DNA from: Kocuria rosea
GTDB lineage: Bacteria > Actinomycetota > Actinomycetes > Actinomycetales > Micrococcaceae
Reading direction: 5' to 3'
Assembly: GCF_006094695.1 (NCBI RefSeq)
Contig: NZ_CP035103.1
Coordinates: forward strand, 2,604,001-2,668,000
Length of the DNA: 64,000 bases
The position numbers and the translations under genes were made by a program. Under the pieces are notes generated by a model that did not search any database, had not been told where the DNA came from, and worked only from the letters and a program-made list of their open reading frames with translations. Of the stretch, positions 47,259 through 62,976 are shown one piece after another. How positions within the stretch are numbered: the stretch's first letter is position 1; every line of letters starts with the position of its first letter.

Positions 47259-48254
47259 TCAGGCCGTCCCGGGGGGGTCCGGGGCCGGGCGCAGGTGCAC
47301 CACGTCGCCCGCCGTCACCTCGCGCTCGGCGCCGCCGTCCTCGCGCACCAGGAGGCCCCCGTGCTCGCCGAGGCCCGTCGCGGTGCCCGTGACGGGGGCG
47401 GCCCCGCCGGGCAGCTCGGCGCGCACCGGGCGGCCGATGGTCTCCATCCGCTCGGTGATCCGGGCGCGCAGCGGCCCGCCCGGGCCCACGGCGGCCTCCG
47501 GGTCCGCGCAGAACTGCAGGTAGACGGGGACGAACGCGCCCAGCACGGCCCGCAGGACGGCGGCGCGCTCGACCTCGCGGCCGGTGGCGCGCCGGACGGA
47601 CGTGGCCGTGTCCACGGGCAGCTCCTGCTGGGCGACGTTGATGCCCGTGCCCAGGACCACCGCCGGCGGGTGCTGCCCGTCCAGCACGAGACCTGCGAGC
47701 AGGCCGGCCGCCTTGCGCCCGTCCACCAGGACGTCGTTGGGCCACTTGATCCGTGCGCCGGCCGCCGCGAGCCCGTCCAGGGCGTCGACGACGGCCGCGG
47801 CCATCAGCAGGGTCAGCCACGGGAAGTGCTGGGTGGGCAGCGGGCGGCCGCGCGCGTCGGCCGGGCGCAGCAGGAGGCTGAAGGTCAGCGCGGTGCCGGG
47901 CTCGGTGGTCCACACCCGGTCCAGCCGGCCGCGCCCGGCGCTCTGGTGGCCGGTGAGCACGAGGGACAGGTCGGTCCACGGCCGGTCCGGGCGGGGCCCG
48001 CGCGCCTGCCGGGTGACGGCGGCCGTCAGGTGCTCGTTCGTGGAGCCGACCTCGTCGAGGACGTCGATCCGCCCCAGGCCGAGGCCCGCCAGGGCCGCGA
48101 GCAGGGCGGGCTCGCGCAGGTCGGCGGCGCAGGGGTCGGGCACGGTGCTCCTCGGGTCGGTCGTCACGGGTCGGTCGTCACGGGCGGGTCCGCACGGGCC
48201 GGGGCGGTCGGTGCTGTCCGGCCGGGCGCCGTCCGCGTAGTGTTCGGACCACAT
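47259..48254 (-). CDS. birA: Biotin--[acetyl-CoA-carboxylase] ligase
   Basis: BirA attaches biotin to the carboxylase alpha subunit encoded at 60323. The catalytic core is clear: VGSTNEHL, LTGHQSAGRGRLDRVW (biotinyl-AMP loop), IKWPNDVLVDGRKAAGLL and VVLGTGINVAQQELP. It has no N-terminal repressor helix-turn-helix. The start is uncertain: ATG 48254 sits by a CTACTACTGT promoter-like element, while GTG 48167 would give 302 residues and avoids a 14-bp tandem duplication (48153-48180). It heads a minus-strand operon and is divergent from the YciI gene. Confidence 0.9.
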   Translation of the reverse strand: MWSEHYADGARPDSTDRPGPCGPARDDRPVTTDPRSTVPDPCAADLREPALLAALAGLGLGRIDVLDEVGSTNEHLTAAVTRQARGPRPDRPWTDLSLVLTGHQSAGRGRLDRVWTTEPGTALTFSLLLRPADARGRPLPTQHFPWLTLLMAAAVVDALDGLAAAGARIKWPNDVLVDGRKAAGLLAGLVLDGQHPPAVVLGTGINVAQQELPVDTATSVRRATGREVERAAVLRAVLGAFVPVYLQFCADPEAAVGPGGPLRARITERMETIGRPVRAELPGGAAPVTGTATGLGEHGGLLVREDGGAEREVTAGDVVHLRPAPDPPGTA

Positions 48255-48342
48255 CCACAGTAGTAGCCCCGTTCCCCGGGAACCGGCTGGACGGTCCCGT
48301 CCGGCCGGGCGGGGCCGCGGCACGACCCCCGGGAGAGCCACC

Positions 48343-48645
48343 GTGAGCGCAGCCGAGAACCGCACGACCTTCGCCGTCACCTACGTCTACGGCGGGCCCG
48401 CCGACGTCCTGGCCGCGCGCCGGCCGGAGCACCGCCAGTACCTCGGCGGGCTCGTGGAGCAGGGGCACCTGCTCGCGTCCGGTCCCTTCGACGACGACGG
48501 CGCGCCCGGCGCGCTGCTGGTCTTGGCCGCCGAGGACGCCGGGGCGGTGGAGCGGCTCACCGACGAGGACCCGCTGGTGCGCCACGGGGTGGTCACCGAG
48601 CGGACCGTCCGCCCCTGGAAGGTGGTCCTCGGCAGCGTCGGCTGA
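48343..48645 (+). CDS. YciI-family protein
   Basis: The 100-residue protein is a YciI/dimeric alpha-beta barrel: [23 protein letters not shown] with the conserved His and Asp region, [23 protein letters not shown] and a C-terminal beta strand TVRPWKVV. Members are small enzymes or accessory factors of unknown function. The GTG has GGGAGAG upstream. It precedes the accD promoter and is the only gene between birA and accD. Confidence 0.88.
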
Positions 48646-48681: not shown

Positions 48682-48698
48682 TTGTAGGAGTTCTACAA
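48682..48698. promoter_or_regulatory. Shared carboxylase operator, accD copy
   Basis: TTGTAG-GAGTT-CTACAA is a perfect 6-bp inverted repeat just upstream of the accD promoter (TAGAGT -10 at 48722-48727, so the site borders the -35 position). A near-identical site lies before accA at 60211. The binding protein is not encoded nearby as far as I can tell. Confidence 0.8.
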
Positions 48699-48803
48699 CG
48701 GAGGCCCCCGCGGCCGCGGACTAGAGTGAGCAGGTCCCCTGACCACCCCGGACCGGACCGATCGGCCCGCCGGGCCGGCCGCGTACCAGACCACGAGGTG
48801 CCT

Positions 48804-50387
48804 GTGACCCACGACCTGACGACCACCGCCGGCAAGATCGCCGACTTCCACGACCGCAGGGCCCGCTCCGAGGTGCCCGCGGGGCAGGCGGCGGTCGAGA
48901 AGCAGCACGCCCGCGGGAAGAACACCGCCCGCGAGCGCGTGGAGATGCTCCTGGACGAGGACTCGTTCGTGGAGTTCGACGCCCTCGCGACCCACCGCTC
49001 GACCGCCTTCGGGATGGCGTCGAAGAAGCTGCCCGGCGACGGCGTGGTCAGCGGCTACGGCACGGTGGACGGGCGCCTGGTGGCGGTCTACTCCCAGGAC
49101 TTCGCGGTCTTCGGCGGGTCGCTGTCCCAGGTCAACGGGGAGAAGATCGTCAAGGTCCAGAAGTTCGCCCTGCGCAACGGCTGCCCGGTCATCGGGATCA
49201 ACGACGGCGGCGGGGCGCGGATCCAGGAGGGCGTGGCCTCCCTGGCCATGTTCGCGGACATCTTCAACATGAACGTCCGCTCCTCCGGGGTGGTCCCGCA
49301 GATCTCGCTGATCATGGGCCCGTGCGCGGGCGGGGCGGCCTACTCCCCCGCCCTGACCGACTACATCGTGATGGTCGACAAGACCTCGCACATGTTCATC
49401 ACCGGCCCGGACGTCATCAAGACGGTCACGGGCGAGACGGTGGACATGGAGACGCTGGGCGGGGCGCGCCAGCACAACGCGACGACCGGCACGGCCACGT
49501 ACCTCGCCGAGGACGAGCAGGACGCGCTGGACTTCGTGCACGAGCTGCTCGAGTTCCTGCCGGCGAACAACCTGCAGGAGGCACCCCTGGTGGACCACGA
49601 CCAGGAGGACGAGGTCACCGACCAGGACCTCGCCCTGGACGTGCTGGTCCCCGACTCCGCGAACCAGCCCTACGACATGCGCGCGGTGGTCGAGGCGATC
49701 GTCGACGACGGGCACTTCCTGGAGATGCAGGCCCTCTACGCCCCCAACGTGATGATCGGCTACGCCCGGGTCGAGGGGCACACCGTGGGCGTCGTGGCGA
49801 ACCAGCCCATGCAGTTCGCCGGCACCCTGGACATCGCGGCCTCCGAGAAGGCGGCCCGGTTCGTGCGCCACTGCGACGCGTTCAACGTCCCGATCCTCAC
49901 CCTCGTGGACGTGCCCGGGTTCCTGCCCGGCACCGATCAGGAGTTCAACGGCATCATCCGGCGCGGCGCCAAGCTGCTCTACGCCTACGCCGAGGCGACC
50001 GTCCCGCTGGTCACCCTGATCACCCGCAAGGCCTATGGCGGGGCCTACATCGTGATGGGCTCCAAGAAGCTCGGCGCGGACGTCAACCTGGCCTGGCCCA
50101 CCGCGCAGATCGGTGTGATGGGCGCCCAGGGCGCCGTGGAGATCCTCTACCGCCGGGACCTCAAGGCCGCCGCGGACAACGACGAGGACGTCGAGGCGCT
50201 GCGCGCCGAGCTGGTGCGCAAGTACGAGGAGAGCCTGCTCAACCCCTACCAGGCCGCCGAGCTGGGCTACGTGGACGCGGTGATCTCCCCGTCCGAGACC
50301 CGGGTGCAGGTGCTCAAGGCCCTGCGGGCCCTGCGCGACAAGCGGGCGTCGATGCCCACCAAGAAGCACGGGAACATCCCGCTGTGA
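48804..50387 (+). CDS. accD: Acyl-CoA carboxylase beta subunit (carboxyltransferase)
   Basis: The 527-residue subunit transfers CO2 from biotin to acetyl-/propionyl-CoA. Features are the N- and C-lobe carboxyltransferase folds with [45 protein letters not shown] and [12 protein letters not shown], ending [14 protein letters not shown] and [14 protein letters not shown]. The GTG start follows GAGG. The stop overlaps accE (GTGA). It is the AccD5/PccB-type found with a biotin ligase and epsilon subunit. The biotinylated partner is AccA at 60323, now far away because of an insertion. Confidence 0.96.
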
Positions 50388-50614
50388 CCCTCCGTGAGCC
50401 CGCCGAGGGCACCCCGTCCCTGCGCTTCACGGCCGGCAGCCCCACGCCGGAGGAGGTCGCCGCCGTCACGGCCGTCCTGCTCGCGCGCCGGCACGCGGGC
50501 GAGGAGGACGCGAAGGGCTCCCCGGGGCGCCGGGACCAGTTCCGCCGGATGCGGCTGGGCCTGAAGCTGCGCCCGGGCCGCGGCGCGTGGCGGCGGACCC
50601 GGCCGGAGGAGTGA
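50384..50614 (+). CDS. accE: Acyl-CoA carboxylase epsilon subunit
   Basis: This 76-residue basic protein starts with a GTG overlapping accD and has the epsilon pattern [24 protein letters not shown], a strand-helix unit that binds the carboxyltransferase. The Gly/Arg-rich C-terminus ([19 protein letters not shown]) is repeated downstream by a 42-bp tandem duplication. Members of this family are small and often missed. It links alpha and beta subunits in mycobacterial and streptomycete carboxylases. Confidence 0.88.
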
Positions 50615-50675
50615 CCGGGCCGCGGCGCGTGGCGGCGGACCCGGCCGGAGGAGTGACCGGGCCGGAGGAGTGACC
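50575..50675 (+). repeat. 42-bp tandem duplication of the accE 3' end
   Basis: Copies 50575-50616 and 50617-50658 are identical; a partial third copy of 17 bases is at 50659-50675. The unit covers the last 13 codons and stop of accE, so the stop codon is repeated. It lies at the left edge of the block that separates accE from maf. Confidence 0.85.
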
Positions 50676-50703
50676 CGCACGCCGTGCCCCGGGTGGCGCC
50701 CGG

Positions 50704-51957
50704 TCACGGCTCCCGGGGGATCCGCCGGGAGACGACGAGCGCCACCGCGATGCCCGCCAGGGCGAGCACCGCCGTCACCGCCCACGTCAGGTCCCAGGAG
50801 CCGGTCGCCTGCGCGACCGAGGCGACCGCGGGCGGGCCGGCGAACTGGCCCAGGGCGTTGAACTGCTGGCCCAGGCCCAGCGTGGTGGCCACCGTGGTGG
50901 GGGTGGGCGCGACGCGCATGAGGCTGGCGATCGCCGTGGTCGGCACCACTCCCCCCACCGCGGAGAACACCAGGACCGCGCCGTACCGGGCGCCGAAGCG
51001 CACGCCCTCGTCCAGCAGCGGGGCGATCCCGAACGCGACCACGGCGGCCAGGCCCAGCACGGCGAAGCCCGTGCACCACAGCACCACGGGGCGCACCCCG
51101 CGATGCAGGGCCCGGCCCGCGCCGAGGTTGCCCACCACGTTGACCCCCGCGGCGAGCGCGCTGAGCCCCGCGGCGGCGCCCGCCGCGATCCCGGCCTCGG
51201 CGTACATGGAGGGCAGGAACTGCACCACCCCGTTCCACTGGGCGGTGTAGAGCCCGAAGACCGCGGCCACGAGCCACGGCCCCGGTGCGCGCAGGGTCAG
51301 CCCGAGGCGCTGCCGCACCCCGTGCACCACCGTGTGGGCCGGGTCCGGCGGGAGCACGGCGAGCACCAGCACGCCCAGGAGCGCGGAGCCGGCCGCGGCG
51401 GCCGCCCACCAGGTGCGCCAGCCGAGGGCCTCGCTGAGCAGCCCGCCGAGGAGCAGGGAGAGGGCCGCGGCGACCGGGATGTGGCAGCCCCACAGCCCCA
51501 CCAGCAAGGACACCCGGGCCGGGGCCACGGTGCGCCGGATCAGGGCCGGGGCGCAGATCGACACGAGCATGAACCCCACGCCCTCCAGCACCCGGGAGCC
51601 CAGCAGCGGGCCGTACCCCGTGGAGAGCAGTCCCGTCACGGAGCCCGCGGTGAGCAGGCCCAGGCCGAGCACCAGGCCCCGGCGCAGGCCGATCCGGTCC
51701 CCGGACAGACCCACCACCACGCCCAGCAGCATGCCGGCCACCTGGACGGTGGAGAGCAGGAACCCGCCCTGCACCAGGCTCAGGCCGAGCTCGGCGGAGA
51801 GCACGGGCAGCGCCGGGGCCAGCTTCCACACGTGCAGGGCGCCCACCACCCCCGCGACCACCACGAGCAGGGCGGGCCCGGTCCCGGCGGTCCCCGAGGG
51901 CCCGGCCGGGACGGTCGCGGGGGGCGCGGAGTTCGCGCGCGGCGCAGGAGCGGACAT
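50704..51957 (-). CDS. MFS transporter, CynX/NimT-like
   Basis: The 417-residue protein has about twelve membrane segments with VVGLSGDRIGLRRGL as motif A, VLEGVGFMLVSICAPALIRR and WTWWAAA-type bends. It fits the cyanate/nitroimidazole group (CynX/NimT/YeaN) of MFS exporters or importers, but the substrate is open. The ATG is 7 bases from TAGACT (51965-51970), leaderless type. It is divergent from the DUF885 peptidase and converges on accE. Confidence 0.85.
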   Translation of the reverse strand: MSAPAPRANSAPPATVPAGPSGTAGTGPALLVVVAGVVGALHVWKLAPALPVLSAELGLSLVQGGFLLSTVQVAGMLLGVVVGLSGDRIGLRRGLVLGLGLLTAGSVTGLLSTGYGPLLGSRVLEGVGFMLVSICAPALIRRTVAPARVSLLVGLWGCHIPVAAALSLLLGGLLSEALGWRTWWAAAAAGSALLGVLVLAVLPPDPAHTVVHGVRQRLGLTLRAPGPWLVAAVFGLYTAQWNGVVQFLPSMYAEAGIAAGAAAGLSALAAGVNVVGNLGAGRALHRGVRPVVLWCTGFAVLGLAAVVAFGIAPLLDEGVRFGARYGAVLVFSAVGGVVPTTAIASLMRVAPTPTTVATTLGLGQQFNALGQFAGPPAVASVAQATGSWDLTWAVTAVLALAGIAVALVVSRRIPREP

Positions 51958-51998
51958 GCTCCGCAGTCTAGGGAGCGCCCGGCGCTACTGTGACGTGC

Positions 51999-53735
51999 AT
52001 GACCGATCAACGGCCCGACCCCCTGACCGGCGCCGGCCCCGCACCCCTCGGCGCGGGGCGGCGCGAGCCCACGGACGTGGACGCCGTGGCCGAGCGCTGG
52101 TTCGCGTGCGCCATGGAGCTGGACCCGGCCCAGGCCACCGTGCACGGCTTCCCCGGGCACGAGGCCGAGTACCGCGACTTCGGGCCCGAGGGCCTGGAGG
52201 CCCACGCCGACGCCGCCCGCCGGACGCTGGCGGAGCTCGAGCGCGCGGCCCCGGTCGACGACGTCGACCGGATCACCGGCCACGCCCTGCGCGAGCGCCT
52301 GGGCCTGGACCTGCTCCTGCACGAGGAGGGGCTGCGGGGCTGGGAGGTCAACAACATCTCCTCCCCGGTGCAGGAGATCCGGGAGGTCTTCGACGACCTG
52401 CCCCGGAGCACCGCCGAGGACTGGGCGCACCTCGCCGGCCGGCTGCGCGCCGTGCCCGCCGCCGTGGACTCCTACGTCCTGGGCCTGCGGCACGCCCGCT
52501 CCCTCGGCCGCTCGGCCTCCGCGGCGCAGCTGCGCAACGCGGCCCGGCAGTGCACCGGCTACGCGGCGCGCCACGGCTTCTTCGACCGGCTGGCGCGCAG
52601 CCCCCGCGTCCCCGAGGCGCTGCGGCAGCAGGTCGGGGAGGCGGCCGAGGCGGCGCGGCACGCCTACCGGGGCCTCGCCGCCGTGCTGGGCAGGGAGCTC
52701 GCCGCGGACGCGCCCCGCACGGACGCGGTGGGACCGGACGTGTACACGCTGCGCCTGCAGGAGTTCCTGGGCGCCGTCCTGGACCCGGCCACGGTCTACG
52801 CGTGGGGCGTGGAGCAGCTGCGCACGATCGTGGCGGAGCAGGAGCAGCTCGCCCGCCGGATCGCCCCCGGCGCCACGGTCGCCGAGGCCATGGCGGCCCT
52901 GGACGCGGACCCGGCGCGGCAGCTGCACGGCACCGACGCGCTGCAGGCGTGGATGCAGGACCTCTCCGACGCCGCCGTGGACGCCCTCGCGGACACGCAC
53001 TTCGAGCTCACCGGCCCCATGCGCCGGCTCGAGTGCCGCATCGCCCCGACCCACGACGGCGGGATCTGGTACTCGATGCCCAGCGCCGACTTCTCCCGCC
53101 CCGGGCGCATGTGGTGGTCCGTGCCCGAGGGCACCCGGACCTTCACCACGTGGGAGGAGACCACGACCGTCTACCACGAGGGCGTCCCCGGCCACCACCT
53201 GCAGTTCTCCACCGCGCTCGCCAACTCGGGCGAGCTCAACCGGTGGCGGCGGATGGGCGTGTGGGTCTCGGGCCACGGGGAGGGCTGGGCGCTGTACGCC
53301 GAGCGGCTCATGGACGAGCTGGGCCACCTGCAGGACCCCGGGGACCGGATGGGGATGCTGGACGCCCAGCGGCTGCGGGCGGCGCGGGTGGTGTTCGACG
53401 TCGGCTTCCACTGTGGCTACCGGATCCCCGCGGAGCTCGGGGACGCCCTCGGCGGGGCCCGCCCCGGCGAGGTCTGGACGCCCGAGGACGGCTGGCAGTT
53501 CCTGCGCTCGAACATCGTGATGGCGGACCCGATGCTGCGCTTCGAGTGGATGCGCTACATGGGCTGGCCCGGGCAGGCGCCGTCCTACAAGGTGGGCCAG
53601 CAGCTGTGGGAGCAGGCGCGGGAGGCGGCCCGCGCCGTGGCGGGCCCGGAGTTCCTGCTCAAGGACTTCCACACCCGCGCGCTGCGGGTCGGCTCGGTGG
53701 GCCTGGACACCCTGCGGTACGCGCTCGCCCTGTGA
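51999..53735 (+). CDS. DUF885-family metallopeptidase-like protein
   Basis: The 578-residue protein has the M32-like zinc motif VYHEGVPGHHLQFSTAL, in which HEGVPGHH resembles HExxH-type peptidase sites and is the hallmark of DUF885. WEVNNISSPVQEIREVF and GWALYAERLMDELGHL (downstream Glu) also match. No signal peptide is present. Function in bacteria is little known; peptidase activity is likely. ATG 51999 is 7 bases after TACTGT (51986-51991); GTG 51990 lies within that element and was rejected. Confidence 0.88.
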   Translation: MTDQRPDPLTGAGPAPLGAGRREPTDVDAVAERWFACAMELDPAQATVHGFPGHEAEYRDFGPEGLEAHADAARRTLAELERAAPVDDVDRITGHALRERLGLDLLLHEEGLRGWEVNNISSPVQEIREVFDDLPRSTAEDWAHLAGRLRAVPAAVDSYVLGLRHARSLGRSASAAQLRNAARQCTGYAARHGFFDRLARSPRVPEALRQQVGEAAEAARHAYRGLAAVLGRELAADAPRTDAVGPDVYTLRLQEFLGAVLDPATVYAWGVEQLRTIVAEQEQLARRIAPGATVAEAMAALDADPARQLHGTDALQAWMQDLSDAAVDALADTHFELTGPMRRLECRIAPTHDGGIWYSMPSADFSRPGRMWWSVPEGTRTFTTWEETTTVYHEGVPGHHLQFSTALANSGELNRWRRMGVWVSGHGEGWALYAERLMDELGHLQDPGDRMGMLDAQRLRAARVVFDVGFHCGYRIPAELGDALGGARPGEVWTPEDGWQFLRSNIVMADPMLRFEWMRYMGWPGQAPSYKVGQQLWEQAREAARAVAGPEFLLKDFHTRALRVGSVGLDTLRYALAL

Positions 53736-53808
53736 CCTCCGTCATTCCGGCGTCACATTTCGTCACCGTCATTCGGTGTTGTATATTCCCGCGCCCTATC
53801 GTGGCCAC

Positions 53809-55206
53809 ATGATTTCCGCAGAAAGCACTCGACGGCTGCCCCGGTGGATGACCTCCTTCGGCCCGCAGATCGTGCTCGCCCTCCTCCTGGGCGTGGTCCT
53901 GGGCACCGTGGCCGACGCCCTGGGCGGCGACCCCGACACGGACCCCAACTGGCTGATGACCGCCCTGGACACCATCGGCACCAGCTACGTCAGCCTGCTC
54001 AAGGCCGCCGTGGTCCCCCTCATCGTGACCGCGGTGATCTCCTCGATCGCCAACCTGCGGGAGGTCTCCAACGCCGCCCGGCTCGCGTGGAAGACGCTGC
54101 TGTGGTTCGGGATCACGGCCCTGATCGCCGTGACGGTCGGCCTGGTGCTCGGCCTGGTCGTCCAGCCCGGCGCCGGCAGCGGCGCGGCCGCGCCCGCCGA
54201 GGCCTACACCGGGACGCAGGGCTCGTGGCTGGGCTTCCTCACCGGCCTGGTGCCCGCCAACTTCCTGGGCCTGCAGGTCTCCTCCTCCGTGGTGGACCCG
54301 GAGACCGTCCAGACCTCCCTCGGCTTCAACGTGCTGCAGGTGCTCGTGGTCTCGGCCGCCGTCGGCATCGCGGCACTGAAGGTGGGCGCCCCCGCCGAGC
54401 CCTTCCTGGCCGTGGTCCGGGCCGCGCTCGCCGTGGTGCAGAAGGTGGTCTGGTGGATCATCCGCCTCGCCCCGCTGGGCACCCTCGGGCTCATCGGCCG
54501 GGCCGTGTTCGAGTACGGCTGGACCTCGATGGGCGGGCTCCTGGCGTTCGTCGCGACCGTCTACGCCGGCCTGCTGGTCGTGGCGTTCGTGGTCTACCCG
54601 GCCCTGGTCAAGGCGCACGGGCTCTCCGTCCGGCAGTACTTCTCCGGCGTGTGGCCGGCCGTGCAGCTGGGCTTCGTCTCCCGCTCCTCGGTGGGCACCA
54701 TGCCCTTGACGCAGCGCGTCACCGAGCGCAGCCTCGGCGTGCCCCGCGCCTACGCGTCCTTCGCCGTGCCGCTCGGGGCCACCACCAAGATGGACGGCTG
54801 CGCCGCGGTCTACCCCGCGATCGCCGCCCTGTTCGTCGCGCAGTTCTACGGGATCGAGCTGGACGTCACGCACTACGTGCTCATCGCGCTCGTGTCCGTG
54901 CTGGGCTCCGCGGCGACCGCCGGCACCACGGGCGCCACCGTGATGCTCACCCTGACGCTGTCCACGCTGGGCCTGCCGCTCGACGGCGTGGGCCTCCTGC
55001 TGGCCGTGGACCCGATCATCGACATGGGCCGCACCGCGCTCAACGTGGCGGGCCAGGCCCTGGTGCCCACGATCGTCGCCCACCGCGAGGGGCTGCTGGA
55101 CCGGGAGCTCTACGACGCCCCGCGCTCCGGCGACCCCTTCGTCCCCGAGGACGCCGCCCCCGAGGGCGCCACCCCCGAGGAGGCCGCGGCGACCGGGGTC
55201 CGCTGA
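53809..55206 (+). CDS. Dicarboxylate/amino acid:cation symporter (DAACS family)
   Basis: The 465-residue membrane protein resembles GltP/DctA: LLKAAVVPLIVTAVISSIANL (helix 3 region), the HP1 serine-rich SRSSVGTMPLTQR, and TTKMDGCAAVYPAIAALFVAQ with the helix 7 substrate region, then GTTGATVMLTLTLST (HP2). It probably imports C4-dicarboxylates, glutamate or aspartate with Na+ or H+. ATG 53809 is 6 bases after TATCGT (53797-53802); the longer start at 53776 precedes this element and is rejected. Confidence 0.92.
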   Translation: MISAESTRRLPRWMTSFGPQIVLALLLGVVLGTVADALGGDPDTDPNWLMTALDTIGTSYVSLLKAAVVPLIVTAVISSIANLREVSNAARLAWKTLLWFGITALIAVTVGLVLGLVVQPGAGSGAAAPAEAYTGTQGSWLGFLTGLVPANFLGLQVSSSVVDPETVQTSLGFNVLQVLVVSAAVGIAALKVGAPAEPFLAVVRAALAVVQKVVWWIIRLAPLGTLGLIGRAVFEYGWTSMGGLLAFVATVYAGLLVVAFVVYPALVKAHGLSVRQYFSGVWPAVQLGFVSRSSVGTMPLTQRVTERSLGVPRAYASFAVPLGATTKMDGCAAVYPAIAALFVAQFYGIELDVTHYVLIALVSVLGSAATAGTTGATVMLTLTLSTLGLPLDGVGLLLAVDPIIDMGRTALNVAGQALVPTIVAHREGLLDRELYDAPRSGDPFVPEDAAPEGATPEEAAATGVR

Positions 55207-55229
55207 GCCCCGGCGCCGCCGTCCCCACC

Positions 55230-55288
55230 GCGAGGGGCGGGGAACTGCGAGAATGCTCGACGCATTCCGGCAGTTCCCCGCCCCTCGC
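55230..55288. repeat. GCGAGGGG compound hairpin repeat, copy 2
   Basis: Outer arms of 19 bases (55230-55248 and 55270-55288) are perfectly complementary and enclose an inner stem GAATGC/GCATTC (55251-55256 and 55262-55267) with loop TCGAC. It lies between the symporter and the GAF regulator, both on the plus strand, and may also act as a terminator. Confidence 0.8.
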
Positions 55289-55363
55289 TGTTCCTGGACG
55301 CGTCACGGGTTACCCTGGGACGGGCATGAGAGCTGGGTCACAGCACGGGACAGGAGGCGGCGC

Positions 55364-56569
55364 GTGGGCGCACCGGCGGACGGACCGACGACGACGGACC
55401 CGCTGCTGCGACTGTCCTGGGCCCGGTCGCTGGACCACCTCTCGGCGCCCGAGCGCTGCACCCCGCGGGTCGTGCTGGACGGCCCCGACGTCCGGGAGGC
55501 CCGCTCCCCGCTGCGCCTGCTGATGCCCGTGCTCGACGAGCTGCTCACCCCGCTGGCCGAGGACACCGGCCTGGTCGTGGCCGTCACGGACCCCGGCGGC
55601 GTGATCCTGCAGGTCCGGGGCAGCGCCGCGACCCGGCGGCGGGCCGAGTCCATGGGCTTCGTCGAGGGCGCCGACTGGTCCGAGCCGGCCGTGGGCACCA
55701 ACGCCCCGGGCACCGCCCTGGTCCTGCGCCGGCCCGTGACCGTGCACCGCGAGCAGCACTTCTACCCCGAGGCCCGGCCCTGGACCTGCACGGCCGCCCC
55801 GCTGCTGCACCCCGTCACGGGGGCGCTGCTGGGGGCGGTGGACCTGACGGGCGGGGACGCCGCCGCGGCCCCCGCCACCCGGGCGCTGGTCGGCGCGGCG
55901 GTGCGCGCCGCCCGGGCCGAGCTGGCCCTCGCCCTGCGCTCCGCCCGCCACTCCGAGACCGCCGCGGCGCCGGCCGCCGCCCCTGCCCACGGCGCGTTCC
56001 TGCGCGTACTCGGCGACGCCCCGCCGGCGCTGGTGCTGGACGGTCAGGCGCTGGAGCTCACCGAGCGCCACGCCGAGATCCTCCTGGCCCTGTCCCGCGC
56101 CGGCAACGGCCTGTGCACCGCGGAGCTGTCGGAGCAGCTGTGGGCCGGCCGGGCGCAGGAGACCACGGTGCGCGCCGAGGTGCTGCGGCTGCGCCGGCTG
56201 CTCGAGTCCCGGGGCGGGCCGGCGATCGCCTCCCGCCCCTACCGGCTCGAGACCCCGCTGCCCTCGGACGCGGGCCGGGTGCTCGAGCTGCTCGCCCGGG
56301 GCTCGCACCGCCGGGCGCTGCGCGAGTACACCGGGGCGCTGCTGCCCCACTCCGAGGCGCCGTCCCTCGTGGCCCTGCGCCACCGCCTCACCGGGCTCCT
56401 GCGCGAGGCCGTCCTGACCGACGGCTCGGCCGAAGCCGTGCGCGAGTACCTCACCCTGCCGGAGGCCGCCGACGACGCCGAGGCGTGGGCGCTGCTGCTG
56501 CGCCTCCTGCCGGCCCGCTCCCCCGCCCGCGCCGAGGCCGTGCTCGAGCTGGAGCGGCTGCGCCGCTGA
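55364..56569 (+). CDS. GAF-domain transcriptional regulator of aldehyde dehydrogenase
   Basis: The 401-residue protein has an N-terminal GAF sensory region typical of AcoR-like activators (VAVTDPGGVILQVRG, GADWSEPAVGTNAPGTAL) and a C-terminal winged-helix-like part (LELTERHAEILLALSRAG, TTVRAEVLRLRRLLES). It lacks the AAA+ sigma-54 domain. The GTG has CAGGAGG 7 bases upstream. Upstream in-frame codons run through the hairpin repeat and are rejected. The aldehyde and alcohol dehydrogenases directly follow, and it probably activates them. Confidence 0.85.
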   Translation: MGAPADGPTTTDPLLRLSWARSLDHLSAPERCTPRVVLDGPDVREARSPLRLLMPVLDELLTPLAEDTGLVVAVTDPGGVILQVRGSAATRRRAESMGFVEGADWSEPAVGTNAPGTALVLRRPVTVHREQHFYPEARPWTCTAAPLLHPVTGALLGAVDLTGGDAAAAPATRALVGAAVRAARAELALALRSARHSETAAAPAAAPAHGAFLRVLGDAPPALVLDGQALELTERHAEILLALSRAGNGLCTAELSEQLWAGRAQETTVRAEVLRLRRLLESRGGPAIASRPYRLETPLPSDAGRVLELLARGSHRRALREYTGALLPHSEAPSLVALRHRLTGLLREAVLTDGSAEAVREYLTLPEAADDAEAWALLLRLLPARSPARAEAVLELERLRR

Positions 56570-56591
56570 CCGGCCACGGAGCCCGCCGCAC

Positions 56592-56613
56592 CGTGCGTGC
56601 AACGTGCGTGCAA
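56592..56613. promoter_or_regulatory. Two 11-bp direct repeats before the aldehyde dehydrogenase
   Basis: CGTGCGTGCAA occurs at 56592-56602 and 56603-56613, followed by a third CGTG. A TAGCGT hexamer (56626-56631) could be the -10, so the repeats lie just upstream. They may be activator sites for the GAF regulator. Confidence 0.5.
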
Positions 56614-56711
56614 CGTGACCCCCCGTAGCGTGATCCGCATCACACGATGGTGCGGACGAGGCGGTCCGCACCCGTGCCACTCGCACCGTCACGCACCAGG
56701 AGCAGGTCACC

Positions 56712-58259
56712 ATGAGCGTTGAAACCCAGTCCCTCACCACCGTCTACGCGCAGCCGGGCACCGAGGGCTCGAAGGTCACCTTCAAGCCCCGCTACGAGCA
56801 CTGGATCGGCGGACAGTGGGTGGCCCCGGTCAAGGGCCAGTACTTCGAGAACATCTCCCCGGTCAACGGCAAGCCCTTCACGGAGGTGGCCCGCGGCACC
56901 GCCGAGGACATCGACGCCGCGCTCGACGCCGCGTGGGCCGCCGCCCCGGCCTGGGGCAAGACCCCGGTCGCCGAGCGGGCCCTCGTGCTGCACCGGGTCG
57001 CCGACCGGATGGAGCAGAACCTCGAGATGCTCGCCGTGGCCGAGACCTGGGACAACGGCAAGCCCGTGCGCGAGACCATCAACGCGGACATCGCCCTGGC
57101 CATCGACCACTTCCGCTACTTCGCCGGGGCCATCCGCGCCCAGGAGGGCACCCTCTCCCAGCTCGACGACAACACCACGTCCTACCACTTCCACGAGCCC
57201 CTCGGGGTGGTCGGCCAGATCATCCCCTGGAACTTCCCGATCCTCATGGGCGTGTGGAAGCTCGCCCCGGCCCTGGCCGCGGGCAACGCCGTGGTGCTCA
57301 AGCCGGCCGAGCAGACCCCGGCCTCGATCATGGTGCTCATGGAGCTGCTCGCGGACATCCTGCCCCCGGGCGTGGTCAACGTGGTCAACGGCTTCGGCGT
57401 GGAGGCCGGCAAGCCGCTGGCCTCCAGCCCCCGGATCCGCAAGATCGCCTTCACCGGCGAGACCACCACCGGCCGGCTCATCATGCAGTACGCGTCCCAG
57501 AACATCATCCCGGTGACCCTCGAGCTGGGCGGGAAGTCCCCGAACATCTTCTTCGAGGACGTCGCCGCGGCCCAGGACTCCTTCTACGACAAGGCGCTGG
57601 AGGGCTTCGCGTTCTTCGCCCTCAACCAGGGCGAGGTCTGCACCTGCCCCTCGCGGGCCCTGATCCAGGGCTCGATCTACGACCGGCTGCTCGCCGACGG
57701 CGTGGAGCGGGTCAAGGGCATGGTCCAGGGCAACCCGCTGGACCTCGACACCCAGGTCGGGGCGCAGGCCTCCAACGACCAGCTGCAGAAGATCCTCTCC
57801 TACATCGACATCGGCAAGCAGGAGGGCGCGAAGGTCCTCGTGGGCGGCGAGCGCAACGTGCTGGACGGGGACCTCGCCGAGGGCTTCTACGTCTCCCCCA
57901 CGGTGTTCGAGGGCGAGAACTCGATGCGCATCTTCCAGGAGGAGATCTTCGGGCCCGTCCTGTCGGTCACCCGCTTCACCGACTACGCCGACGCCATGGC
58001 CACCGCCAACGACACCCTCTACGGCCTGGGTGCCGGGGTCTGGGCCCGCAACGGCAACCTGGCCTACCGCGCCGGCCGCGACATCCAGGCCGGGCGCGTG
58101 TGGGTGAACCAGTACCACAACTACCCCGCCCACTCCGCGTTCGGCGGCTACAAGTCCTCCGGCATCGGCCGCGAGAACCACCTCATGATGCTGGACCACT
58201 ACCAGCAGACCAAGAACCTGCTGGTCTCCTACTCCGAGGACGCCCAGGGATTCTTCTAA
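56712..58259 (+). CDS. NAD(P)-dependent aldehyde dehydrogenase (AldB/ExaC-like)
   Basis: This 515-residue enzyme oxidises aldehydes to acids. It has [43 protein letters not shown], the general base E271 in [12 protein letters not shown] and the nucleophile C310 in [12 protein letters not shown], plus EIFGPVLSV and [21 protein letters not shown]. The GEVCTCPSR sequence marks the acetaldehyde-type AldB/ExaC group. CAGGAG precedes the ATG, and adhP follows 52 bases later. Confidence 0.95.
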
Positions 58260-58311
58260 ACCGCCCTCACCCGTCCCGTCCCGATCGTCCGCCCGTTCCA
58301 GGAGGAGCACC

Positions 58312-59385
58312 ATGAACGCCCATCAAGCCCCGACCGTCCAGGAGTCCGCGGCCACCGCGGTCCCCGGCACCATGACCGCCGCCGTCGTCACCGCCTTCGG
58401 GCAGCCCCTGGAGGTCAAGGACCTCCCGGTCCCCGAACCCGGCCCCGGCCAGGTCCTCGTCAAGCTGATCTCGACCGGTGTGTGCCACACCGACCTGCAC
58501 GCCGCCCACGGCGACTGGCCGGTCCAGCCCACCCCGCCCTTCGTCCCGGGCCACGAGGGCGTGGGCACGGTCGTGGCCCTCGGCCCGGGCGTCACGGAGG
58601 TGCAGGAGGGCGACCTCGTGGGCAACGCCTGGCTGGCCTCGGCGTGCGGGCACTGCCGCAACTGCCGCACCGGCTGGGAGACGCTGTGCGAGGAGCAGGT
58701 CAACGGCGGCTACAGCATCGACGGGTCCTTCGGCCAGTACATGCTGGTCGACGCCCGCTTCGCCGCGCAGATCCCCGCGGGCGCCGACCCGTACGAGGTG
58801 GCGCCGGTGCTGTGCGCCGGGGTCACCGTCTACAAGGGCCTGAAGATGACCGAGGCGCGGCCTGGGGAGTGGGTGGTGATCTCCGGCATCGGCGGCCTGG
58901 GGCACCTGGCCGTGCAGTACGCGGTGGCCATGGGCCTGCGGGTCGCGGCGGTCGACGTCGCCGACGACAAGCTGGCCCTCGCCCGCAAGCACGGGGCGGA
59001 GATCACCGTCAACGCGTTCGCGGAGGACCCGGCCGAGGCCGTGCTCGCGCAGATCCCGGGCGGCGCGGACGCCGTGCTGGTGACCGCCGTGCACCCGGCC
59101 GCGTTCGGCCAGGCGATCGGCATGGTCCGCCGCGGCGGGACGATCGTGTTCAACGGCCTGCCGCCCGGGGACTTCCCGGCGCCGATCTTCGACATCGTGC
59201 TCAAGGGCCTGACCATCCGCGGGTCCATCGTGGGCACGCGCCAGGACATGGTCGAGGCCCTCGACTTCTACGCGCGCGGTCTGATCCACCCGACCTACAG
59301 CACCCGTCCGCTCGAGGACGTCAACGCCGTCCTCGACGAGATGGAGAAGGGCAAGATCGAGGGCCGCGTGGTCGTCGAGTACTGA
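58312..59385 (+). CDS. adhP: Zinc-dependent alcohol dehydrogenase, AdhP type
   Basis: The 357-residue enzyme interconverts primary alcohols and aldehydes. Catalytic zinc ligands are seen in GVCHTDLH and GHEGVGTV, with the structural zinc cysteines in ACGHCRNCRTGWETLC and the NAD fold in GIGGLGHLAVQYA. With the preceding aldehyde dehydrogenase it can take ethanol to acetate. AGGAGGAG precedes the ATG. Downstream is the large repeat cluster. Confidence 0.94.
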   Translation: MNAHQAPTVQESAATAVPGTMTAAVVTAFGQPLEVKDLPVPEPGPGQVLVKLISTGVCHTDLHAAHGDWPVQPTPPFVPGHEGVGTVVALGPGVTEVQEGDLVGNAWLASACGHCRNCRTGWETLCEEQVNGGYSIDGSFGQYMLVDARFAAQIPAGADPYEVAPVLCAGVTVYKGLKMTEARPGEWVVISGIGGLGHLAVQYAVAMGLRVAAVDVADDKLALARKHGAEITVNAFAEDPAEAVLAQIPGGADAVLVTAVHPAAFGQAIGMVRRGGTIVFNGLPPGDFPAPIFDIVLKGLTIRGSIVGTRQDMVEALDFYARGLIHPTYSTRPLEDVNAVLDEMEKGKIEGRVVVEY

Positions 59386-59396
59386 GCCGGGCGGAC

Positions 59397-59517
59397 GCGA
59401 GGGGTCGCGTCCTGTCCCGGGCGATCGTGAGGGGTCGCGTCCTGTCGGTGGGAGAACGTCTCATCAGCAGGACGCGGCCCCTCGCGCGTGGGCGAGGGGC
59501 GCAGCGCGGCCCCTCGC
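59397..59517. repeat. GCGAGGGG compound hairpin cluster, copy 3
   Basis: Two direct copies of GAGGGGTCGCGTCCTGTC (59399-59416 and 59429-59446) are 30 bases apart. The second pairs with CAGGACGCGGCCCCTC (59468-59483, one mismatch) around an inner GAGA-ACG-TCTC hairpin (59452-59462). A further 9-bp stem (GCGAGGGGC, 59492-59500, with 59509-59517) follows. It fills the gap between adhP and maf, at the right edge of the block inserted in the carboxylase cluster. Confidence 0.75.
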
Positions 59518-59543
59518 GCGCACGGCCTGCGTATCCTGGGACG

Positions 59544-60179
59544 GTGACTCCCCGCCTCGTCCTCGCCTCCCGCTCCCCCGCCCGCACCAAGCTGCTGGCC
59601 GACGCCGGGATCGGCCACGACCGGCTCGTCTCCGACGTGGACGAGGACGCCGTGGTCCGGGAGCGCGGGGTGACCGGCGCCGAGGAGACCGCGATGGTCC
59701 TGGCCCGGGCCAAGGCGGAGGCCGTGGCGGCGCTGCCCGAGGCCGCCGGCGCCCTCGTGGTGGGCTGCGACTCGGTCTTCGAGCTCGACGGCGAGGTGCA
59801 CGGCAAGCCCTTGGACGCCGCGACGGCGACCGCCCGGATCCGGGCCATGCGCGGGCGCTCGGGGGTGCTCCACACGGGCCACTGGCTCGTGGACACGCGG
59901 AGCCCGGCGGACGGCGGGAGCGGCTGGAGCGGCGGCGCGCCCGCCAGCGCCGAGGTGTTCTTCGCGCAGATGTCCGACGACGAGGTCGCGGCCTACGTGG
60001 CCACCGGCGAGCCCCTGGAGGTGGCCGGGTCCTTCACCATCGACTCGCTCGGCGCGGCATTCGTGGAGCGGGTGGAGGGCGACGTGCACGCCGTCGTCGG
60101 CCTGAGCCTCAGTACCCTGCGCACGCTGCTCGGCCGGGCGGGCGTCGGCGTGCCCGAGCTGTGGACCGCCGGCCGCTGA
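59544..60179 (+). CDS. maf: Maf-family nucleotide pyrophosphatase
   Basis: Maf proteins hydrolyse dTTP/UTP or modified nucleotides and have been linked to septum control. The 211-residue protein starts LVLASRSPARTKLLADAGI and has DEDAVVRE, VVGCDSVFELDGEVHGKPL, MRGRSGVLHTGHWLV and GSFTIDSLGAAFVERVEGD. The GTG is 6 bases after TATCCT (59532-59537), a clear leaderless layout. In mycobacteria maf lies between accE and accA; here it follows the inserted block and precedes accA by 143 bases. Confidence 0.94.
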   Translation: MTPRLVLASRSPARTKLLADAGIGHDRLVSDVDEDAVVRERGVTGAEETAMVLARAKAEAVAALPEAAGALVVGCDSVFELDGEVHGKPLDAATATARIRAMRGRSGVLHTGHWLVDTRSPADGGSGWSGGAPASAEVFFAQMSDDEVAAYVATGEPLEVAGSFTIDSLGAAFVERVEGDVHAVVGLSLSTLRTLLGRAGVGVPELWTAGR

Positions 60180-60210
60180 GAACCGCTCCCCGCCGGAACC
60201 GGTCTGCGCT

Positions 60211-60227
60211 TTGTAGGACTCCTACAG
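60211..60227. promoter_or_regulatory. Shared carboxylase operator, accA copy
   Basis: TTGTAG-GACTC-CTACAG matches the accD site (TTGTAGGAnTYCTACAR as consensus). It lies about 60 bases above a possible -10 (TACAGT, 60288-60293) of accA. Confidence 0.78.
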
Positions 60228-60322
60228 AAACGGCGTCGCATTTCCGGTCCGCCGCCGGGTGGTTGGGCGATTGCTCACGACGGGGAATACAGTGCATCGG
60301 AGGATTCGACAAGGAGTGAGAC

Positions 60323-62116
60323 GTGACCGGTAAGAACCCCGCGGACGGCGCCATCCGCCCCATCACCAAGGTGCTCGTCGCCAACCGCGGCGAGATCGCG
60401 GTGCGCGTGATCCGCGCCGCCCGCGACGAGGGCATCGCCTCCGTGGCCGTGTACGCCGACCCGGACCGGGACGCCCTGCACGCCCGCACGGCGGACGAGG
60501 CGTACGGGCTCGGCGGGTCCACCGCCGCGGACTCGTACCTGGTGATCGACAAGATCCTCGACGTCGCCGCCCGCTCGGGAGCCGACGCCGTGCACCCCGG
60601 CTACGGCTTCCTGTCCGAGAACGCCGAGTTCGCCCTCGCCGTGCTCGAGGCCGGACTGACCTGGATCGGGCCCCCGCCCGCGGCCATCGCCAAGCTCGGC
60701 GACAAGGTGGCCGCCCGCCACATCGCGGAGAAGGTCGGCGCCCCGCAGGTCCCCGGCACCACCGACCCGGTCGGCTCCGCCGAGGAGGTCCTCGCGTTCG
60801 CCGACGAGCACGGGCTGCCCCTGGCCATCAAGGCCGCCTTCGGCGGCGGCGGCCGCGGCATCAAGGTGGTCCGCAACCGCGACGACATCCCGGAGCTCTA
60901 CGAGTCCGCCGTGCGCGAGGCCACCGCGGCGTTCGGCCGCGGCGACTGCTTCGTGGAGCGCTTCCTGGACGCCCCGCGGCACGTCGAGACCCAGTGCCTG
61001 GCCGACGCCCACGGCAACGTGGTGGTCGTCTCCACCCGCGACTGCTCCCTGCAGCGGCGCAACCAGAAGCTCGTGGAGGAGGCGCCGGCGCCGTTCCTGT
61101 CCGAGGAGCAGAACCGCCTGCTCTACGCCTCCTCGAAGGCGATCCTGCGCGAGGCCGGCTATCAGGGCGCGGGCACGTGCGAGTTCCTGGTGGGCCAGGA
61201 CGGCACGATCACGTTCCTGGAGGTCAACACCCGCCTGCAGGTGGAGCACCCCGTGTCCGAGGAGGTCACGGGCATCGACCTGGTGCGGGAGCAGTTCCGG
61301 CTGGCCCGCGGCGAGGCCCTCGGCTACGACGACCCGGAGGTCCGCGGCCACTCGATCGAGTTCCGCATCAACGGCGAGGACCCGGGACGGCACTTCATGC
61401 CCTCCCCCGGCACCATCGCCGCCCTCGACCTGCCCGGCGGTCCCGGCGTGCGCGTGGACTCCGGTGTGCAGGCCGGCGAGACCGTGGGCGGGAACTTCGA
61501 CTCCATGCTCGCCAAGCTGATCGTCACCGGGGCCACCCGGCAGCAGGCGCTCGAGCGCTCCCGCCGGGCGCTGGCGGAGCTGCGCATCGAGGGCATGCCC
61601 ACCGTGGTCCCCTTCCACCGCGCCGTCGTCGCCGATCCCGCGTTCGCCCCCGCGGACGGCGCCCCCTTCTCCGTGCACACGCGGTGGATCGAGACGGAGT
61701 TCGACAACACCATCCCGCCCTTCGAGGGCGTCCCGCAGGCCGGGCCCGAGGCCGAGGAGCGCCAGGCGATCGTCGTCGAGGTCTCCGGCAAGCGCCTCGA
61801 GGTGGTCCTGCCCGCCCTGCCCGGCACGGCCAAGCCCAACGGGGCCGCGGCCAAGCCCCGCAAGTCCCGCTCCGCCCGCGGCGGCGGCACCGCCGCGGCG
61901 AGCGGCGACAGCCTGAGCTCCCCGATGCAGGGGACCATCGTGAAGATCGCGGTGGACAACGGGGACGAGGTGGCCGAGGGCGATCTCGTGCTGGTGCTCG
62001 AGGCCATGAAGATGGAGCAGCCGCTGACCGCCCACAAGTCGGGCACGGTCTCGGGGCTGTCCGTCAGCCCCGGGGACACCGTCTCCGCCGGCGCCGTTCT
62101 GGCGACCATCTCCTGA
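60323..62116 (+). CDS. accA: Acyl-CoA carboxylase alpha subunit (biotin carboxylase-BCCP)
   Basis: The 597-residue chain carboxylates its own biotin. It has the biotin carboxylase start [30 protein letters not shown], the ATP-grasp [27 protein letters not shown] and a C-terminal carrier domain with the biotinylated lysine in EAMKMEQ (about K563). A Lys/Ala/Gly-rich linker (about 490-530) joins them. The GTG start has AAGGAG upstream. BirA at 47259 biotinylates it; AccD and AccE are partners. It belongs to the AccA3 type that serves several carboxylases. Confidence 0.96.
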
Positions 62117-62135: not shown

Positions 62136-62966
62136 ATGAGCACCCGACCGACCGGCGCCCCCGGGCGCTGCCTCGTGGACCTCTCCGCGCAGGACCGGCT
62201 GCGCAGCGGCGCCCCCGCCCGGACGCCGCGGCTGCGGGTGCTCTGCTGCCCGCCCTCGGGCGCGGCCGCCGGGTACTGGCGGTTCCTCGTCCGCGAGGAC
62301 GTGCACGTCCTCGGCGTCCAGTACCCCGGCCGGGAGAGCCGCTTCCGGGAGCCGCCGGCGCCCTCGGTCGCCGCCCTCGCCGCGGAGGCGGCCGAGGCCG
62401 TCGCCGGCGCGCCGTGGGCGGCCTCGGACGTCCCGCTCGTGGTCCTGGGCCACAGCATGGGCGCCTCCGTCGCGGCCGAGCTCGCCTCGCTCCTCGAGCA
62501 CCGGGAGGGGATCCGGGTGTCGCTGCTCGCGCTCTCCGCGAAGACCGCCCCGGGCGCCGTGGACGCGGCGGACGACGGGGACGACGATTTGCGGGCCGGG
62601 CTCGACCCGCAGGACCCGGGCGCGGACGAGGCGCTCGCCCGGTGGCTGCGGCGGCTCGGCGGCACCCCCGAGGCGGTGCTGGCGAACCCCGAGCTGATGG
62701 CCCTGCAACTGCCAGCCCTGCGCGCGGACCTGCTGGTCTCGATGGCCCACGACCGGCTCCCCGCCCCGGTCGGGGCGCCCCTGCTGCTGCTGCGCGGCAG
62801 CGAGGACCACACGGTGGACGCCGCCGGCATGGACGCCTGGCGTCCCGTCAGCACGGGGGCCGTGCAGCGGCGCGAGTACCCCGGCGGCCACCACCCGCTC
62901 GCGGAGAACCGGCACCGCCTGCTCGAGGACCTCGAGGCGTGCGCCGATCCCGGCCGCTCCCGGTGA
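62136..62966 (+). CDS. Type II thioesterase (GrsT-like)
   Basis: The 276-residue alpha/beta hydrolase is of the editing thioesterase class: RVLCCPPSGAAAGYWR at the start, QYPGRESRF, nucleophile in VLGHSMGASVAAELA, acid in LRGSEDHTVDA and base in PGGHHPLAE. These enzymes remove wrong acyl groups from nonribosomal peptide or polyketide carrier proteins. It starts 19 bases after accA and is followed by a phosphopantetheinyl transferase, so a biosynthetic locus probably lies to the right. Confidence 0.9.
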   Translation: MSTRPTGAPGRCLVDLSAQDRLRSGAPARTPRLRVLCCPPSGAAAGYWRFLVREDVHVLGVQYPGRESRFREPPAPSVAALAAEAAEAVAGAPWAASDVPLVVLGHSMGASVAAELASLLEHREGIRVSLLALSAKTAPGAVDAADDGDDDLRAGLDPQDPGADEALARWLRRLGGTPEAVLANPELMALQLPALRADLLVSMAHDRLPAPVGAPLLLLRGSEDHTVDAAGMDAWRPVSTGAVQRREYPGGHHPLAENRHRLLEDLEACADPGRSR

Positions 62967-62976
62967 GCCCGTCGTC

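What the first reader, a model, noticed from the sequence alone, without database searches (positions are those of the whole stretch)
48682..60227. One operator motif upstream of both accD and accA
TTGTAGGAGTTCTACAA (48682-48698) and TTGTAGGACTCCTACAG (60211-60227) give the consensus TTGTAGGAnTYCTACAR. The genes are 11.5 kb apart but encode subunits of one enzyme, so a shared regulator would keep them balanced. No regulator gene lies beside either site. It could define a fatty-acid or malonyl-CoA regulon.
Basis: partly seen in the sequence, partly recalled or inferred. Interest (0 to 1): 0.75.

Follow-up and report, generated by a model that had tools for sequence, protein, structure and literature searches.

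The report
FasR/MabR operators at acetyl-CoA-carboxylase genes
In Kocuria and most of its bacterial family, the switch protein known to turn on the fatty-acid factory appears also to control both halves of the enzyme that makes its raw material, and in some relatives biotin genes as well.

Summary
Both palindromes are at the stated coordinates, and the Kocuria genome has no other full match. The regulator can be named: a further copy in the same genome lies between fabD and a PucR-family gene homologous to Mycobacterium MabR (Rv2242) and so to Streptomyces FasR. The published MabR operator, TTTTGT-N9-ACAAAA, has the same architecture.

In sampled FasR-positive Micrococcaceae (score at least 11 of 16) the site precedes fabD in 36 of 36, accD in 35 of 35 and accA in 34 of 34 (accA decoy 3 of 34). 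Rothia, the genus without FasR, has no site at score 12 or more at accD (0 of 16) or accA (0 of 9). In other orders the fabD site is common (33 of 37) while acc sites are rare. The acc sites look like a lineage-specific regulon extension.

In 35 of 35 Micrococcaceae accD promoters a -10-like hexamer lies 22 or 23 bp beyond the site, an activator-like geometry. A scan of 24 further genomes gave 51 strict sites: fabD 21, accA 17, accD 3, fasR 3, bioY 2, a dehydrogenase 1, other or unclear 4.

Everything is computational. Binding, direction of regulation and ligand are inferred from orthologues.

The parts
48682..48698 (.). FasR/MabR-type operator upstream of accD (TTGT-N9-ACAA)
   Evidence: centre about -44 from the inferred start of transcription
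48722..48727 (+). inferred -10 element TAGAGT of accD, 23 bp after the operator
   Evidence: a -10-like hexamer lies 22 or 23 bp after the site in 35 of 35 Micrococcaceae accD promoters; one search found no sigma-70 consensus promoter here
48804..50387 (+). accD, acyl-CoA carboxylase carboxyltransferase (beta) subunit
   Evidence: Pfam Carboxyl_trans E 3.5e-196
50384..50614 (+). accE-like epsilon subunit, probably one transcript with accD
   Evidence: Pfam ACC_epsilon E 7.2e-13
60211..60227 (.). FasR/MabR-type operator upstream of accA (TTGT-N9-ACAG)
   Evidence: centre about -81 from the inferred start of transcription
60288..60293 (+). inferred -10 element TACAGT of accA, 60 bp after the operator
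   Evidence: such a hexamer at 60-62 bp in 19 of 34 Micrococcaceae accA promoters; one search found no sigma-70 consensus promoter here
60323..62116 (+). accA, biotin carboxylase / biotin carrier (alpha) subunit
   Evidence: Biotin_carb_N, CPSase_L_D2, Biotin_carb_C, Biotin_lipoyl
47259..48380 (-). birA, biotin protein ligase without a Pfam-detected HTH domain (neighbour; considered as a rival regulator; start codon uncertain)
   Evidence: only BPL_LplA_LipB and BPL_C, also in the longest frame

Best explanation
Both palindromes are operators of the PucR-family regulator FasR (homologue, by position and sequence the orthologue, of M. tuberculosis MabR, Rv2242, and S. coelicolor FasR, SCO2386), encoded about 1 Mb away in the same genome, directly upstream of fabD, with its own copy of the site in between. 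The core circuit FasR-site-fabD is ancient in the class. In the Micrococcaceae and some sister families the regulon has been extended to accD (with accE) and accA, and in some genera to biotin supply (bioY, bioB), a short-chain dehydrogenase next to fabG, and fasR itself. Inferred mechanism: a FasR dimer reads two half-sites 13 bp apart. At accD it sits against the place of a missing -35 element (centre about -44), as in class II activation. At accA it sits about 81 bp upstream of the start. In both it recruits RNA polymerase when acyl-CoA signals call for more malonyl-CoA, so both carboxylase subunits rise together with FAS II. Shown here: sites, conservation, spacing, co-loss with the regulator. 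Inferred: binding, activation, ligand.
For: Operator architecture: MabR sequence 5'-TTTTGT(N)9ACAAAA-3' in PMC5541348 (passages); the site at accD is TTTTGT-N9-ACAACG and at accA CTTTGT-N9-ACAGAA. Regulator: HTH_30 + GGDEF_2; Rv2242 structures 9f80 and 9fb1 are the best and third of 3 PDB matches (2.8e-56, 2.9e-22), with near-identical HTH stretches LFVHANTVRYRLRRI and LFVHPNTVRYRLKRI. A further site overlaps the end of fasR, in front of fabD. Family (at least 11 of 16): fabD 36 of 36, accD 35 of 35, accA 34 of 34 (decoys 0, 0, 3). At 12 or more: 35 of 36, 35 of 35, 28 of 34 (decoys 0). Co-loss: FasR in 271 of 295 Micrococcaceae and 30 of 31 genera; the 20 FasR-less genomes listed (4 more were not) are all genus g3, which contains G028 = Rothia sp. 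RSM386. Named loci at 12 or more: accD 0 of 16 Rothia against 55 of 63 others (decoy 1 of 63); accA 0 of 9 against 28 of 37 (decoy 0). Genome-wide strict scan: 47 of 51 places in 24 genomes precede fabD, accA, accD, fasR, bioY or the dehydrogenase. Spacing: -10-like hexamer at 22 bp (25) or 23 bp (10) in 35 of 35 accD promoters, and at 22 bp after the three bioY sites and the one bioB site. Paralogous accA in the same genome has no site (best score 9).
Against: No binding or expression data for any Micrococcaceae FasR in what I read. The Rothia loss is in effect one event. Some lineages lack acc sites although FasR is found in nearly the whole family: at 12 or more, accD fails in 8 of 63 named non-Rothia loci (5 Nesterenkonia and Psychromicrobium at 11, one Micrococcus, Auritidibacter) and accA in 9 of 37 (7 Nesterenkonia, one Micrococcus, one Kocuria marina at 11) (FasR itself was not checked in each of these records). 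No such -10 hexamer was found for accA in 15 of 34, none after the two dehydrogenase sites, none identified for fabD. Outside the family the spacing differs: accD 54-56 bp in G043, G047, G048, 48 in G057, 24 in G056, 16 in G041. The raw number of strict sites is hardly higher than for the reversed control (51 against 43; 39 against 33): the evidence is where they lie, not how many. At 11 or more, decoys reached 3 of 34 for accA and 7 of 16 for Rothia accD, so single scores of 11 are weak; 6 of the 34 accA sites are at 11. The accA copy in the window breaks the strict core by one base. 27 of the 36 FasR-positive family genomes are the window's own genus and not independent.
Confidence: 0.88

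Rival explanations
1. Another regulator, with an overlapping or identical motif, binds the acc promoters (for example a TetR-type FasR/AccR as in Corynebacterium or S. avermitilis, or the probable regulator encoded between accD and accA).
For: TetR regulators are named as confirmed at some acc promoters (PMC11602165 passage); accBC and accD1 of C. glutamicum carry TetR-FasR sites (PMC6460773 passages). A probable regulator ORF lies at 55253-56569 (weak, sub-threshold match).
Against: The same motif is kept between fasR and fabD across the class (33 of 37 FasR-positive genomes of other orders) and fits the published MabR operator. The neighbouring regulator ORF was found in only 4 of 63 non-Rothia loci, while 57 of the 59 without it have the accD site at score 11 or more (some flanks are short). 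TetR FasR/AccR orthologues in this genome were not searched.
Confidence: 0.07
2. The sites are FasR operators but repress: FasR bound next to the accD promoter shuts carboxylase synthesis when end products are high.
For: At accD the operator abuts the -35 position, where repressors can also act; MabR overexpression was first read as repression (PMC5541348 passage).
Against: No -35-like hexamer was found there, and the 22-23 bp gap is fixed, as expected if the regulator replaces -35 recognition; at accA the site lies far upstream; MabR depletion lowers fasII transcription and S. coelicolor FasR is described as an activator.
Confidence: 0.2
3. BirA-type biotin operator: birA is divergent next to accD and bioY/bioB carry sites in some genera, so biotin ligase would be the regulator.
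For: birA neighbours accD; sites at bioY and bioB. E. coli BirA half-sites also begin TTGT (recalled).
Against: This BirA has no Pfam HTH domain, also in its longest frame; most strict sites are at fabD and acc genes, few at biotin genes; E. coli BirA half-sites lie much further apart (recalled).
Confidence: 0.02
4. Chance or an unrelated structural palindrome (terminator, recombination site).
For: Palindromes can be terminators.
Against: 0.06 expected in the window; no terminator-like site found; conserved position and spacing in dozens of species.
Confidence: 0.01

Closest known systems
MabR (Rv2242) and its fasII operator, Mycobacterium
   Same: Homologous PucR-type regulator encoded upstream of fabD; operator half-sites TTGT and ACAA with a 9-base spacer; activator of FAS II (PMC5541348 abstract and passages; PMC11617747 passages).
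   Different: The described target is the fasII operon fabD-acpM-kasA-kasB-accD6; accD6 sits inside that operon. Here separate operators serve stand-alone accD-accE and accA promoters. No mycolic-acid FAS II is implied here.
FasR (SCO2386), Streptomyces coelicolor
   Same: Activator encoded directly upstream of the fabD-fabH-acpP-fabF operon; inverted repeats highly similar to those of MabR, at about -67.
   Different: Known target is fabDHPF; acc genes are not named as its targets in the passages read. The original paper (Arabolaza 2010) is not held. In 36 FasR-positive genomes of other orders, accD sites at 11 or more were 2 (decoy 1) and accA 4 (decoy 0).
TetR-type FasR of Corynebacterium glutamicum and AccR (SAV5279) of Streptomyces avermitilis
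   Same: One regulator acting on acyl-CoA carboxylase subunit genes, in C. glutamicum on two separate ones.
   Different: Unrelated protein family, repressors; the C. glutamicum accD1 site overlaps its reading frame.

Membership tests
MabR/FasR (PucR-type) regulon | Operator with TTGT-N9-ACAA core | tested here: met
   accD exact; accA TTGT-N9-ACAG, one base off; fabD exact
MabR/FasR (PucR-type) regulon | Regulator with PucR HTH, homologous to Rv2242 | tested here: met
   HTH_30 E 2e-21, GGDEF_2 E 2.7e-15; Rv2242 chains 2.8e-56 and 2.9e-22
MabR/FasR (PucR-type) regulon | Regulator gene directly upstream of fabD with the operator between | tested here: met
   L003; 36 of 36 Micrococcaceae fabD regions at 11 or more
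MabR/FasR (PucR-type) regulon | Regulator binds the operator | not testable with these tools
   needs EMSA or ChIP
MabR/FasR (PucR-type) regulon | Activation, with long-chain acyl-CoA as effector | not testable with these tools
   only promoter geometry is consistent; effector reported for MabR
TetR-type FasR / AccR regulon | fasO or AccR operator sequence at the acc promoters | not tested
   operator letters were not obtained; the AccR paper is not held
BirA (bifunctional ligase/repressor) operator | BirA with N-terminal HTH | tested here: not met
   only ligase domains, in the frame from 48200 and in the longest frame from 48380

The most novel reading that the evidence does not exclude
In the Micrococcaceae a single PucR-type activator has become the master switch of malonyl-CoA supply. 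It drives FAS II, both acyl-CoA carboxylase subunits and, in some Arthrobacter-like genera, the biotin cofactor (bioY import, bioB synthesis), with one transplantable promoter module (17-bp operator, 22 bp, -10) found at accD, bioY and bioB. The regulon was rebuilt by gaining operators, and it was lost with the regulator in Rothia.
Probability: 0.6. Interest if true: 0.65.

Novelty: new variant of a known kind. Interest (0 to 1): 0.55.

Why it matters
Acetyl-CoA carboxylase makes the first committed precursor of fatty acids and polyketides. PMC11602165 (passage) states that, before its own LysR-type AccR, the only confirmed regulators of acc promoters, and of some only, were TetR proteins; a PucR-type regulator of both subunits would be a different solution. 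It ties the FAS II activator (essential in M. smegmatis) to precursor and cofactor supply, gives a clear case of regulon growth by operator gain, and offers a short promoter module for tuning malonyl-CoA in Kocuria and Arthrobacter. I saw no paper linking a PucR-type FasR/MabR to separate acc or biotin genes in the listings of searches; these list only the top-ranked papers of an open-licence library.

Tried and rejected
A first site table was wrong for minus-strand loci because loci from the genome search are not turned; it was redone (the first script, timed out). The sigma-70 scan found no promoter at either site, so the -10 elements rest on conserved spacing. Other 2-3-mismatch hits were read: 23 loci of the own genome (11 inside a predicted gene, 4 only beside one, 8 unassigned) and a selection from relatives (many inside a reading frame, several unassigned); none added a clear regulon member. 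TTCAAGGACTTCTACAA, which recurs, would read FKDFYN in frame and was taken as coding without a check. A BirA operator and the neighbouring regulator ORF were considered and rejected. In one search the maf query was out of frame and gave nothing; one search repeats it in frame (Maf E 1e-45) and scans the longest birA frame. Possible weak accA sites in two genomes of genus g66 were not pursued. A fabD -10 was not found; the conserved CTTGGT/CTTCGT after the fabD site is unexplained. Rows not counted: accD and accA of G019 (no match / truncated), accA of G002 (split in two; a site-like palindrome lies about 110 bp upstream), accD and accA of G051, accAb of G041, accD of G038, G039, G054 and G055 (not taken; their accA regions were), fabD of FasR-less genomes and of G055, and any region under 200 bases. 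'FasR-positive' there includes G054 and G055 with split or partial matches and G039 with a weak one. In one search the accD of L238 was dropped (flank under 300 bases), and accA was seen only where it fell in the flank (9 of 16 Rothia, 37 of 64 others).
Full report
Observation. In the window 0.06 hits of up to 3 mismatches are expected, and the two sites account for four of the five rows found (each is near-palindromic and so appears on both strands). In the whole 3.95-Mb genome they are the only full matches. The genome is a Kocuria: its accD is 97% identical to that of K. polaris.

Naming the regulator. Of three 2-mismatch places in the genome, one, TTGTAGGGATGCTACAA, overlaps the stop codon of a 424-residue PucR-family regulator and precedes fabD. 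The regulator has HTH_30 and GGDEF_2 domains. Its best PDB match is M. tuberculosis Rv2242 = MabR (9f80, 2.8e-56), with a nearly identical HTH stretch. PMC5541348 (abstract and passages) gives the MabR recognition sequence as TTTTGT(N)9ACAAAA, says that S. coelicolor FasR is 42% identical and recognises highly similar repeats, and shows MabR to be an activator of the fasII operon whose DNA affinity responds to long-chain acyl-CoA. The window sites have the same TTGT-N9-ACAA plan (accA with a final G). In this genome the exact core occurs at fabD, at accD and once inside a predicted reading frame; the reversed control gave 20 forward matches.

Conservation. I took the regions upstream of fabD (after fasR), accD and accA from the window's genome, 58 relatives and 42 genomes of other orders of the class. 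The best 17-mer was scored against TTGTAGGANTCCTACAA (16 scored positions), with the reversed sequence as decoy. FasR-positive Micrococcaceae at 11 or more: fabD 36 of 36 (decoy 0), accD 35 of 35 (decoy 0), accA 34 of 34 (decoy 3). At 12 or more: 35 of 36, 35 of 35 and 28 of 34 (decoys 0). Of these, 27, 26 and 25 regions are from the window's own genus, so they are not independent. Other families of the order at 11 or more: fabD 14 of 18 (decoy 1), accD 6 of 15 (decoy 0), accA 5 of 18 (decoy 2). Other orders of the class: fabD 33 of 37 (decoy 0), accD 2 of 36 (decoy 1), accA 4 of 36 (decoy 0). So the fabD circuit is old and the acc sites are a later extension. FasR-less genomes in that call: accD 0 of 8 and accA 1 of 9 at 11 or more.

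Loss with the regulator. FasR was found in 271 of 295 sampled Micrococcaceae and in 30 of 31 genera. The 20 FasR-less genomes that were listed (4 more were not) all belong to genus g3. In named records, accD has a site at 12 or more in 0 of 16 Rothia and 55 of 63 other loci (decoy 1 of 63); accA in 0 of 9 and 28 of 37 (decoy 0). The non-Rothia exceptions are mostly Nesterenkonia, plus Psychromicrobium (score 11), Auritidibacter and Micrococcus, and for accA one Kocuria marina (score 11). FasR was not checked in each named record. The Rothia loss is in effect one event.

Promoter anatomy. After the accD site, 35 of 35 Micrococcaceae promoters have a TANNNT-type hexamer at 22 bp (25) or 23 bp (10). 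Among the 61 named non-Rothia accD loci scoring 11 or more, 56 have one at 22-24 bp; the other five are Nesterenkonia whose score-11 hits are probably spurious. In the window this is TAGAGT at 48722-48727, placing the operator centre near -44, against the place of a -35 element that is not there. At accA a similar hexamer lies at 60-62 bp in 19 of 34, in the window TACAGT at 60288-60293, centre near -81. In Micrococcaceae and seven chosen order relatives the fabD start codon lies 66-68 bp after the site in 37 of 43 regions, undetected in 6; in other orders 66-69 bp in 16 of 33, 82 bp in 2, undetected in 15. In other families with an accD site the hexamer lies elsewhere (54-56 bp in G043, G047 and G048; 48, 24 and 16 bp in G057, G056 and G041), which may mean separate gains. 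The spacings within the family fit an activator. Transcription starts were not measured.

Regulon content. Strict sites (TTGTRG-N5-CYACAA) were listed in 18 genomes (39 places, reversed control 33) and 24 further Micrococcaceae genomes (51 places, reversed control 43; 23 of 24 genomes have one). Their number is thus near the control's; their location is the evidence. For the 51, 44 were assigned by tblastn and 7 by coordinates next to fasR: fabD 21, accA 17, accD 3, upstream of fasR 3, bioY 2, a short-chain dehydrogenase behind fabG 1, other or unclear 4. Of the 39, 32 are at fabD or acc genes by coordinates and 2 upstream of, or at the start of, fasR (its start codon is uncertain). The remaining 5 are bioY, bioB, the dehydrogenase, one inside a gene and one unclear. 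The three bioY sites and the bioB site have a TANNNT hexamer exactly 22 bp downstream; the two dehydrogenase sites do not. The bioY sites come from two genera (g5, g51) and the bioB site from one (g6). The second, paralogous accA of the window genome has no site.

Interpretation. The best reading is a FasR/MabR regulon extended from FAS II to its substrate-making enzyme, and in some genera to that enzyme's cofactor. By analogy with its orthologues the effect is probably activation tuned by acyl-CoA. PMC11602165 (passage) names only TetR regulators as confirmed at acc promoters before its own LysR-type AccR. Two key papers (Arabolaza 2010; the AccR paper on S. avermitilis) were not held, so prior mention of acc targets cannot be excluded.

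Limits. No binding or expression data exist for these species in what I read. A score of 11 alone is weak, most of all in A+T-rich regions: Rothia accD decoys reached 11 in 7 of 16.

Gene names that had rested on recall (maf, the dehydrogenases, the phosphopantetheinyl transferase) are now backed; the neighbouring regulator is now called probable only.

Noticed in passing
window 55253-59385: A probable regulator ORF (sub-threshold Trans_reg_C) with aldehyde and alcohol dehydrogenase genes lies between accD and accA; the regulator was found in only 4 of 63 non-Rothia Micrococcaceae loci.
   Followed up: partly
L003 and relatives, about 12-19 bp after the fabD site: Conserved CTTGGT/CTTCGT element with no clear -10 in the fabD promoter.
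   Followed up: no
G029, G048, G067, G074, G077 at or upstream of the fasR start: A strict site just before fasR, suggesting autoregulation in some lineages; start codons uncertain.
   Followed up: partly
L238: Record labelled Sporosarcina beigongshangi carries an accD 83% identical to that of Kocuria, with the operator; the label or assembly looks wrong.
   Followed up: no
G054, G055: fasR matches are split or partial, with stop codons or near a contig edge.
   Followed up: no
window 62136-63684: Type II thioesterase directly after accA, followed by a phosphopantetheinyl transferase gene (ACPS E 1.1e-12).
   Followed up: no
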